DNA of 48,382 nucleotides, taken from positions 827 through 49,208 of the forward strand of contig JADFOI010000008.1 in NCBI GenBank assembly GCA_022562935.1, written 5' to 3'. The position numbers and the translations under genes are program-made. The stretch is from Acidobacteriota bacterium (GTDB taxonomy: Bacteria; Acidobacteriota; UBA6911; RPQK01; JADFOI01). Below are positions 36,546 through 38,303 of this stretch, piece after piece (within the stretch, counting starts at the first letter, position 1; every line of letters starts with the position of its first letter). The notes under the pieces are model-generated. The model was given only the letters and a program-made list of their open reading frames with translations. It made no database searches and was not told the DNA's origin.

Positions 36546-38303
36546 ATGGCCAAAGACTGGGCTTTTGTGGATCGATTCACATCGGATAAACCCTTCGAGC
36601 TCCCCGCAGATGCCTTTCCCCCACCGGAACGGATAGACACCGTGTCGGTCTCCCAGGCCGATGATGTGCGAGCCACCGACCCCGTGATCTGGCTCACCCA
36701 CAAGAGCATTTCCCGCTGTTATCCCTGGTGGATCGCCGACAACTACCACATGATGAATGATGTTCTGGAGGGGGATCCCGTCTGGGTTGCCTTCTGAGAG
36801 AACTGCAGCTCCGGGGGAGCTTATTTAAGCAGGTCCGACGGCATCGATCTCACCTTTTTTACGCCTGGACTTTACAACGCCACGGCGGCGGCCAAGGATC
36901 ATCAGACCAACAACTGGTGGTCTCCCAACGACGGTGTCTGTCTTGCCGGACCCAGAGCGGGCCAGATCCTGCCCCGCATACCGCTTTACAACGGTACCTT
37001 TGAAGATTTTTGCCGGCTGCATCCCCAGGGAGAAGTGATGGTTTGGAATCACCCTACCCATCGTGACGGCCGCCATGGTCACGGCTCCGACGAGTTTCCC
37101 GGCCGGGTAGGGGTGAAAAAACATTTCTACGACACCATCCAACTAGGCGATCTCGACCCCAGACTTCAGGAAAACGAGATCGTGCTGGGCATCAATGAGG
37201 ACTTCGGCCCACTGGCAGTTCCCCGTGTGGAGATCTGGAAAGAGGATTTCGTGCTCAACACCACGGTCGGTGAGGTTCCCTTTGTAGCCCTGTGCCTGCC
37301 TTCGACACACACCATGGGAGCCTACCATCGGTCGGTGGATGGGGAGGTGATCTCGCTGAGTCGCTCAGGCGATTCTTTTCTCGACGATTCCTCCGGTTCA
37401 CTGTGGAATGTCGAAGGCCGCTGTGTGGAAGGACCCTGGGCCGGCAAATCTCTCCCGCCCCTGAACTTTGCCACCCTGGAGTGGCATGCCTGGGTTTCCT
37501 ATCATCCTGAAACAGAGATCTATAAAAGCCCAACCCAACAGACCCTCATGGAGGTCCAGGACCCCTGTTTGGCGAAAGTCTGTCGACTCATTGGCGAAAA
37601 TCACACCATTGAGCGGCAGTGGCCGGTACTGAAAGCATGGCTGCCGGAGCGTGCCGATTCTGGAGTCGAGGTGGTGATCGAGAGCCACCCCCTACGCCTC
37701 TTTCATTTCACAGGGGCCCGCGAAGGGGAGGATTGGGCGTTTTGCCGTAAACACAGTGCGGGCAGCGGCTGCCTTGCCGCTACCAGCTTTCCGGAAAGTC
37801 TCTACTCCGATCCAGCTCACCAGGAACGGCTGCCTGAGGATCAGATCCAGTGGTCTCCTCTGATTGAAAACGGTGAGATCAAGGAGGTTCTGGAAACGGT
37901 ACGCACCCACTGTTCACTGGACCATCCGACTTTTCCCACATTGGGGGAGTTCGTTGAGCGCCTGGAGGAGGCGGGTTACCGGGTCCGCCAGAGCCGATAT
38001 CTTCTCAGCTCTGAGCTCACAGCCCGGGCCGAAGTGGGATTTTCCTTAATGATTGGACGGGACCGCTGGCAGTTGTTCCGCTTCCCTTCCCGGAAACTGG
38101 CTGCCCAGGAGGCGAAAAGAAGAGGACACTGTATCCAGGCGGGAAAATTTCTACTTTGGTCCGATCCCCCCGGCATGTACGTGCAGTGGCTGACCCTGAC
38201 CCGCCCCGATCATGAAGTTTCCTGGTCCGAGGCACTCCAGGATGAAGCCTTCCGGACTCTGATCGAAGATTTTGGGGACCTAGCCTTGAAAATGCAAGGA
38301 TAG
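36546..38303 (+). CDS. DUF3179-family protein, probable selenoprotein with in-frame TGA (Sec84) in a UxxC motif
   Basis: AGGAGG SD then ATG 36546. Frame runs 36546-38303 with a single TGA at 36795-36797 and no other stop. DPVIWLTHKSISRCYPWWIADNYHMMNDVLEGDPVWVAF-U-ENCSSGGAYLSRSDGIDLTFFTPGLYNATAAAKDHQTNNWWSPNDGVCLAGPRAGQILPRIPLYNGTFEDFCRLHPQ matches DUF3179, with TGA replacing the first Cys of the family CPLC motif. Confidence 0.85.
36802..36834 (+). promoter_or_regulatory. Putative bacterial SECIS stem-loop
   Basis: CUGC-AGCUCC-GGG-GGAGCU-(UAUUUAA)-GCAG. 6-bp apical stem with G-rich loop about 16 nt after the UGA, plus a 4-bp lower stem. Confidence 0.6.

What the first reader, a model, noticed from the sequence alone, without database searches (positions are those of the whole stretch)
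36546..38303. Probable new selenoprotein: DUF3179-family protein with an in-frame UGA at the first position of its CxxC motif
Seen directly: the ORF track calls 36546..36797 and 37035..38303 as two ORFs, but they share a frame (offset 489 nt = 163 codons) and I read every codon between them without another stop. The only interruption is TGA at 36795-36797. The joined protein is about 585 aa with WVAF-U84-E-N-C87-SSGGAYLSR. From family knowledge, DUF3179 proteins carry a highly conserved CPLC at this position (typically VTFCPLCGTxVxFDR), so the UGA falls on the first conserved Cys and leaves a UxxC redox motif, the usual pattern for bacterial Sec/Cys pairs. A random nonsense mutation or error would be unlikely to hit that codon while about 1.5 kb of downstream frame stays open and family-like. 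I am not aware of DUF3179 being a known selenoprotein family. That novelty statement is from memory and needs a search.
Basis: partly seen in the sequence, partly recalled or inferred. Interest (0 to 1): 0.97.

Follow-up and report, generated by a model that had tools for sequence, protein, structure and literature searches.

The report
Selenocysteine member of DUF3179 family
An Acidobacteriota genome encodes a well-supported selenocysteine-containing redox-type protein that databases cut in half at its UGA codon, but its family (DUF3179) was already listed as a bacterial selenoprotein family in 2007, so it is a new member, not a new family.

Summary
Window 36546-38303 (+) is one 585-codon frame whose only interruption is TGA at codon 84, and the protein is DUF3179 (PF11376, E 1.3e-35). 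The Sec reading is strongly supported. TGA occupies codon 84 in all eight distinct loci of this subfamily that I could read (47-91% protein identity, separate assemblies). Every other DUF3179 sequence with a residue in that column has Cys or TGA. Codons after the TGA, including those before any internal start, are under purifying selection (dN/dS about 0-0.2). The codons forming the hairpin just downstream are frozen at synonymous sites. The genome has SelA, SelB, SelD (itself TGA-containing), tRNA-Sec and about ten other selenoprotein-like genes. The novelty claim is wrong: DUF3179 has been a listed predicted selenoprotein family (UxxC/T) since Zhang & Gladyshev 2007. What may be new is the subfamily: no N-terminal hydrophobic segment, UENC motif, two DUF3179 repeats plus a duplicated unnamed C-terminal domain, forming its own Sec clade. 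Likely function: selenolate redox enzyme served by thioredoxin-like partners (inferred). The catalytic repeat weakly resembles a Rieske fold without the iron ligands (speculative). Sec insertion itself is untested here.

The parts
36546..38303 (+). Selenoprotein gene: 585-aa DUF3179 protein, ATG start, TAG stop, in-frame TGA at codon 84
   Evidence: orthologous frames in L036, L037, L058-L062
36530..36535 (+). Shine-Dalgarno AGGAGG, 10 nt before ATG
   Evidence: read directly; GGAGG also at this place in L036, L058, L059
36795..36797 (+). TGA codon 84, proposed selenocysteine
36804..36806 (+). Cys87 codon, second residue of UENC
   Evidence: aligned position is C, T or A elsewhere in the family
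36807..36821 (+). Candidate SECIS hairpin AGCTCC-GGG-GGAGCT, loop starting 15 nt after the TGA
   Evidence: codons 88-93 synonymously invariant in seven loci. Overall folding energy is not exceptional (z -0.24)
36636..37070 (+). DUF3179 repeat 1 (residues 31-175), carries U84
37128..37535 (+). DUF3179 repeat 2 (residues 195-330), homologous to repeat 1 but without the C/U motif
   Evidence: hhalign repeat 1 vs repeat 2: prob 99.85, E 1.3e-29
37557..37925 (+). C-terminal domain copy 1 (residues 338-460), no Pfam name
   Evidence: no Pfam match there
37929..38300 (+). C-terminal domain copy 2 (residues 462-585), homologous to copy 1
   Evidence: hhalign prob 99.86, E 2.2e-31
37035..38303 (+). 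Truncated downstream ORF as ordinary gene callers see it (internal GTG start)
   Evidence: database relatives P0002 and P0004-P0008 have the same kind of truncation (412-437 aa)
34684..36504 (+). Upstream same-strand amidohydrolase (PF07969), 41 nt before the gene; linkage seen only in the closest relatives

Best explanation
The gene encodes a 585-aa selenoprotein of the DUF3179 family. The ribosome reads UGA at codon 84 as selenocysteine, using the host's SelA/SelB/SelD/tRNA-Sec and a hairpin immediately 3' of the UGA. Sec84 sits at the end of a beta-strand in the first of two DUF3179 repeats, at the position that is otherwise an invariant Cys. It most likely acts as a redox selenolate in a protein without signal peptide (presumably cytosolic); in this subfamily it can pair with Cys87 as a selenenylsulfide that a thioredoxin-like partner reduces. 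Shown here: frame, family, conservation of the TGA, purifying selection downstream, machinery. Inferred: actual Sec insertion, redox catalysis, partner and location. The substrate is unknown. The confidence given is for the selenoprotein reading; for the thioredoxin-served redox role I would put about 0.6.
For: TGA at codon 84 in window, L036 (91% id), L037 (69%), L058 (89%), L059 (90%), L060 (62%), L061 (47%), L062 (66%). Cys at the aligned position in 39 homologs, e.g. P0010 CENC, L063 CERC, P0018 CARC. dN/dS about 0.13-0.26 downstream of TGA; 0-0.2 in residues 96-163, before the internal start. Codons 88-93 synonymously frozen: 6/6 against 47/246 elsewhere, hypergeometric 7e-5, run of 6 or more anywhere 0.0115. 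SelA 574 bits, SelB 362 bits, SelD 374 bits with its own TGA, tRNA-Sec 71.4 bits. Other TGA-containing redox genes in the host: deiodinase-like, peroxiredoxin-like, AhpD-related, OsmC-related. Other Sec DUF3179 genes in the phylum carry hairpins at a comparable distance, with loop GGTCT in L010, L014, L015, L016. Redox hint: Cys DUF3179 fused to TlpA-like thioredoxin domains (P0028, P0029, P0031) and a Thioredoxin_9 gene directly upstream of the Sec gene in L037.
Against: No experiment shows Sec in the protein. The hairpin is not more stable than shuffled sequence (z -0.24), no Rfam family matches it, and in divergent L061 the hairpin has another sequence and a slightly different register. The second motif position is Ala or Thr in some Sec members, so a UxxC selenenylsulfide cannot be the family-wide mechanism. 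Thioredoxin links occur in relatives, not in this window.
Confidence: 0.93

Rival explanations
1. Nonsense mutation, pseudogene or assembly error: the TGA is a real stop or a sequencing mistake, and the downstream part is decaying or read from an internal start.
For: Standard gene callers split the gene; public relatives are annotated as the downstream part only.
Against: Same TGA in eight loci from separate assemblies down to 47% identity; purifying selection after the TGA, including the stretch before the internal GTG; TGA hits exactly the invariant Cys column in several clades.
Confidence: 0.02
2. Genome-wide recoding of TGA (for example TGA = Trp) rather than selenocysteine.
For: TGA is read through in frame here.
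Against: The aligned residue in homologs is Cys in all 39 non-TGA sequences, never Trp; in-frame TGA candidates in the genome are few, and the clear ones lie at Cys sites of known selenoprotein-type families; Sec machinery and a tRNA-Sec with anticodon TCA are present.
Confidence: 0.01
3. UGA readthrough or regulated termination without Sec insertion (near-cognate decoding giving two products).
For: A hairpin follows the codon; the N-terminal 83 residues are also conserved.
Against: The UGA is confined to the column of the invariant Cys, across several clades; hosts of TGA-bearing DUF3179 genes in the relatives set all have SelB over its cut-off (12 of 12; but 53 of 61 overall, so weak on its own).
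Confidence: 0.03
4. On mechanism (not exclusive with the best explanation): DUF3179 repeat 1 is a remote Rieske-type fold that has lost the [2Fe-2S] ligands and uses Cys or Sec in the old cluster-binding loop 2 as its redox centre.
For: Foldseek of the repeat-1 model (pLDDT 92.8): the leading PDB matches are almost all Rieske proteins (4aiv prob 0.99, 2qpz 0.96, 3c0d_C 0.97; TM-score by target about 0.5); the full-length model also finds PetC3 5cxm_A, prob 1.00. Motif resemblance CPL[CT]GS..FD to CPxHG..FD (by eye).
Against: Foldseek E-values for the repeat 0.04 or worse; profile-profile comparison with 30 Rieske domains fails (prob 0.1 for repeat 1); no CxH...CxxH ligand set; the His before the motif shifts by one position between subfamilies.
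Confidence: 0.2

Closest known systems
DUF3179 selenoprotein family (pfam11376, UxxC/T), Zhang & Gladyshev 2007, as listed in PMC9312934 and PMC13188914
   Same: Same Pfam family; Sec at the first position of the motif, C at the fourth (UENC fits UxxC).
   Different: This subfamily is about 585 aa with UENC instead of UPLC/UPLT-type motifs, has no N-terminal hydrophobic segment, and carries a duplicated C-terminal domain. The 2007 paper could not be read here, so whether this subfamily was among its examples is unknown.
Cys-type DUF3179 proteins of about 600 aa with CERC or CENC (P0010, P0011, P0013, P0014, P0016, P0017, P0020, P0021, P0023-P0025)
   Same: Same domain order and length; about 28-34% identity; Cys exactly where TGA stands.
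   Different: Cys in place of Sec; sister or neighbouring clades in the tree (P0010 nearest, support 94/86).
Membrane-anchored or exported DUF3179 paralogs (L001-L004 in the same genome; Sec forms L010, L013-L017, L025-L027 in relatives)
   Same: Same family, same invariant C/U column; several are also TGA-containing.
   Different: Those checked have N-terminal hydrophobic segments and are shorter; their Sec states fall in separate parts of the tree (at least 2 changes forced by well-supported branches).
Rieske proteins (PF00355)
   Same: Weak predicted-fold resemblance of repeat 1.
   Different: No ligand set, no profile similarity.

Membership tests
Bacterial selenoprotein | In-frame UGA with conserved coding sequence on both sides | tested here: met
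Bacterial selenoprotein | Cys homologs aligned to the UGA (Sec/Cys pair) | tested here: met
   39 Cys, 16 TGA, nothing else
Bacterial selenoprotein | UGA conserved in independent genomes | tested here: met
   eight distinct loci
Bacterial selenoprotein | Host has selA, selB, selD and tRNA-Sec | tested here: met
Bacterial selenoprotein | SECIS hairpin just 3' of the UGA with G in the apical loop | tested here: inconclusive
   hairpin present and synonymously frozen, but not unusually stable and not scored with a dedicated SECIS program; no Rfam match
Bacterial selenoprotein | Selenium found in the protein | not testable with these tools
   needs 75Se labelling or mass spectrometry
DUF3179 (PF11376) | Pfam model above the curated cut-off | tested here: met
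   123.7 bits against 27
DUF3179 (PF11376) | Invariant Cys/Sec at the start of the CxxC/T motif | tested here: met
Rieske (PF00355) | CxH...CxxH cluster ligands | tested here: not met
   sequence has H68...U84-E-N-C87 only
Rieske (PF00355) | Profile similarity to Rieske domains | tested here: not met
   hhalign prob 0.1-2.4
Rieske (PF00355) | Rieske fold | tested here: inconclusive
   Foldseek prob up to 0.99-1.00, but no match with E below 0.001

The most novel reading that the evidence does not exclude
A cytosolic DUF3179 selenoenzyme subfamily in which a Rieske-like fold, stripped of its iron-sulfur ligands, uses selenocysteine in the former cluster loop as the redox centre.
Probability: 0.15. 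Interest if true: 0.6.

Novelty: new member of a known kind. Interest (0 to 1): 0.35.

Why it matters
It adds a well-supported, so far mis-annotated (N-truncated) branch to a predicted selenoprotein family of unknown function, shows that the first Cys/Sec is the only invariant residue of the motif, and gives natural Sec/Cys ortholog pairs for working out what DUF3179 does. It does not open a new selenoprotein family.

Tried and rejected
Novelty as a new family: rejected after literature search. Pseudogene, internal start or whole-genome recoding: rejected. ARAGORN's second tRNA-Sec (C85): not supported by the Rfam model, probably false. A second SelB (C24): 92% identical to the first and at a contig edge, so most likely a near-identical second strain in the bin, not a second Sec system. 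Rfam search for a SECIS family: nothing. PDB sequence search with the family profile: nothing significant. Viral fold library: one uncharacterised Indivirus protein, E 1.7e-6, otherwise nothing. Rieske membership by profile: failed. My heuristic genome scan for TGA genes is crude and did not list this gene itself among its 39 candidates; it was used only to find other clear cases. The primary 2007 paper (PMC1976440) is not held.

Full report
Observation. Reading TGA as a residue, window 36546-38303 (+) is a single 585-codon frame with one internal stop, TGA at 36795-36797 = codon 84. A strong Shine-Dalgarno (AGGAGG 36530-36535) precedes the ATG. Pfam assigns residues 31-323 to DUF3179 (E 1.3e-35).

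Is the TGA meaningful? The subfamily was collected as DNA from genome and metagenome collections. Every locus that includes codon 84 (window, L036, L037, L058, L059, L060, L061, L062; 47-91% protein identity) has TGA there. Of 55 DUF3179 sequences with a residue in the column, 39 have Cys and 16 have TGA; in a 36-sequence alignment of the first repeat it is one of four invariant columns. dN/dS after the TGA is about 0.13-0.26, and in residues 96-163, which lie after the TGA but before the internal GTG used by gene callers, it is 0-0.2. So the part after UGA is translated in the same frame as part of one protein. Public databases hold most close relatives as 412-437-aa truncated proteins (P0002, P0004-P0008) and one as 487 aa (P0003), starting after the TGA.

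Host. The genome (3.44 Mb, Acidobacteriota by its named near relatives) has SelA (574 bits), SelB (362 bits), SelD (374 bits, itself with an in-frame TGA) and tRNA-Sec (71.4 bits). A crude scan found further in-frame-TGA redox genes: three deiodinase-like, three peroxiredoxin-like, an AhpD-related CxxU, an OsmC-related GGULTGT, a DsbA-like and a thioredoxin-like protein (the DsbA-like and thioredoxin-like names are by eye).

Recoding signal. An AGCTCC-GGG-GGAGCT hairpin lies right after the TGA, its loop starting 15 nt downstream. Codons 88-93, which span it, are identical at synonymous sites in seven loci, whereas only 47 of 246 other amino-acid-invariant degenerate codons are. Four other DUF3179 Sec genes in the phylum can form a CACC-GGTCT-GGTG hairpin with the loop at the same distance (in L015 it is not the predicted minimum-energy fold). 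The hairpin's total energy is not exceptional, and the most divergent member, L061, has a different hairpin in nearly the same place. The SECIS is therefore plausible, not proven.

Architecture. The DUF3179 region is an internal duplication (hhalign 99.85%); only the first copy carries the C/U motif. It is followed by two copies of an unnamed domain of about 120 aa (99.86%). The AlphaFold model is confident (pLDDT 92.9). U84 ends a beta-strand before a short loop. The N-terminus shows no hydrophobic segment, unlike the other DUF3179 proteins checked, so the protein is presumably cytosolic (inference).

Evolution. In the tree the eight loci form one Sec clade (100/100) whose nearest Cys neighbour is P0010 (CENC). 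Sec also occurs in two other parts of the family (UxxC, UPLA), and well-supported branches force at least two Cys/Sec changes. L025, in a genome of the same family as the host, has UPLT. Within the order, members of this subfamily were found only in the host's own taxonomic family. Hosts of the TGA forms all have SelB over the cut-off (12 of 12), but 53 of 61 relatives do, so this is only consistent.

How it works (inferred). The invariant C/U and the fusions of Cys-type DUF3179 to TlpA-like thioredoxin domains (P0028, P0029, P0031), together with a Thioredoxin_9 gene directly upstream in L037, point to thiol/selenol redox chemistry. Cys87 can act as resolving residue in this subfamily, but some Sec members have Ala or Thr there, so an external thiol must resolve them. 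The substrate is unknown. The upstream amidohydrolase is linked only in the closest relatives, so it is weak evidence of a joint function. The repeat-1 model resembles Rieske domains in Foldseek, but E-values are poor, profiles do not match and ligands are absent: a lead, not a finding.

Novelty. DUF3179 has been listed as a predicted selenoprotein family (UxxC/T) since Zhang & Gladyshev 2007, per PMC9312934 and PMC13188914; a database record already carries '(seleno)protein' in its DUF3179 name. The finding is therefore a well-supported new member or subfamily of a known predicted selenoprotein family. The open-access library may miss other papers, and the primary paper was not available.

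Noticed in passing
G000 contigs C91:12588(-), C111:6469(+), C32:33446(+), C20:6231(+), C26:35594(-), C82:21597(+), C188:38467(-), C108:9325(+), C106:15704(+), C182:8517(-): About ten further in-frame-TGA genes at redox-Cys positions (deiodinase-like, peroxiredoxin-like, AhpD-related, OsmC-related, DsbA-like, thioredoxin-like): a selenoprotein-rich Acidobacteriota genome.
   Followed up: partly
L013, L026, L027 (DUF3179 loci in relatives): Sec DUF3179 proteins with UPLA, i.e. no Cys or Thr at the fourth motif position; the reviews read here list only UxxC/T.
   Followed up: partly
window 37557-38300 (residues 338-585): Tandem pair of an unnamed domain of about 120 aa (hhalign 99.86% between copies), no Pfam family; shared by the 600-aa DUF3179 proteins.
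   Followed up: partly
P0028, P0029, P0031: DUF3179 fused to a TlpA/ResA-like thioredoxin domain: a functional clue for the family.
   Followed up: no
L037:3977-4462: Thioredoxin_9 gene about 94 nt upstream of the Sec DUF3179 gene, same strand, in a relative (G005).
   Followed up: no
G000 C24:2-1735: Second SelB copy, 92% identical to the C19 copy and cut by the contig edge; probably strain redundancy in the bin.
   Followed up: yes
G000 C85:85681-85780: ARAGORN tRNA-Sec call not supported by the Rfam tRNA-Sec model; likely false positive.
   Followed up: yes
BFVD A0A1V0SD44 (Indivirus ILV1): Uncharacterised giant-virus protein with a predicted fold like part of this protein (E 1.7e-6).
   Followed up: no
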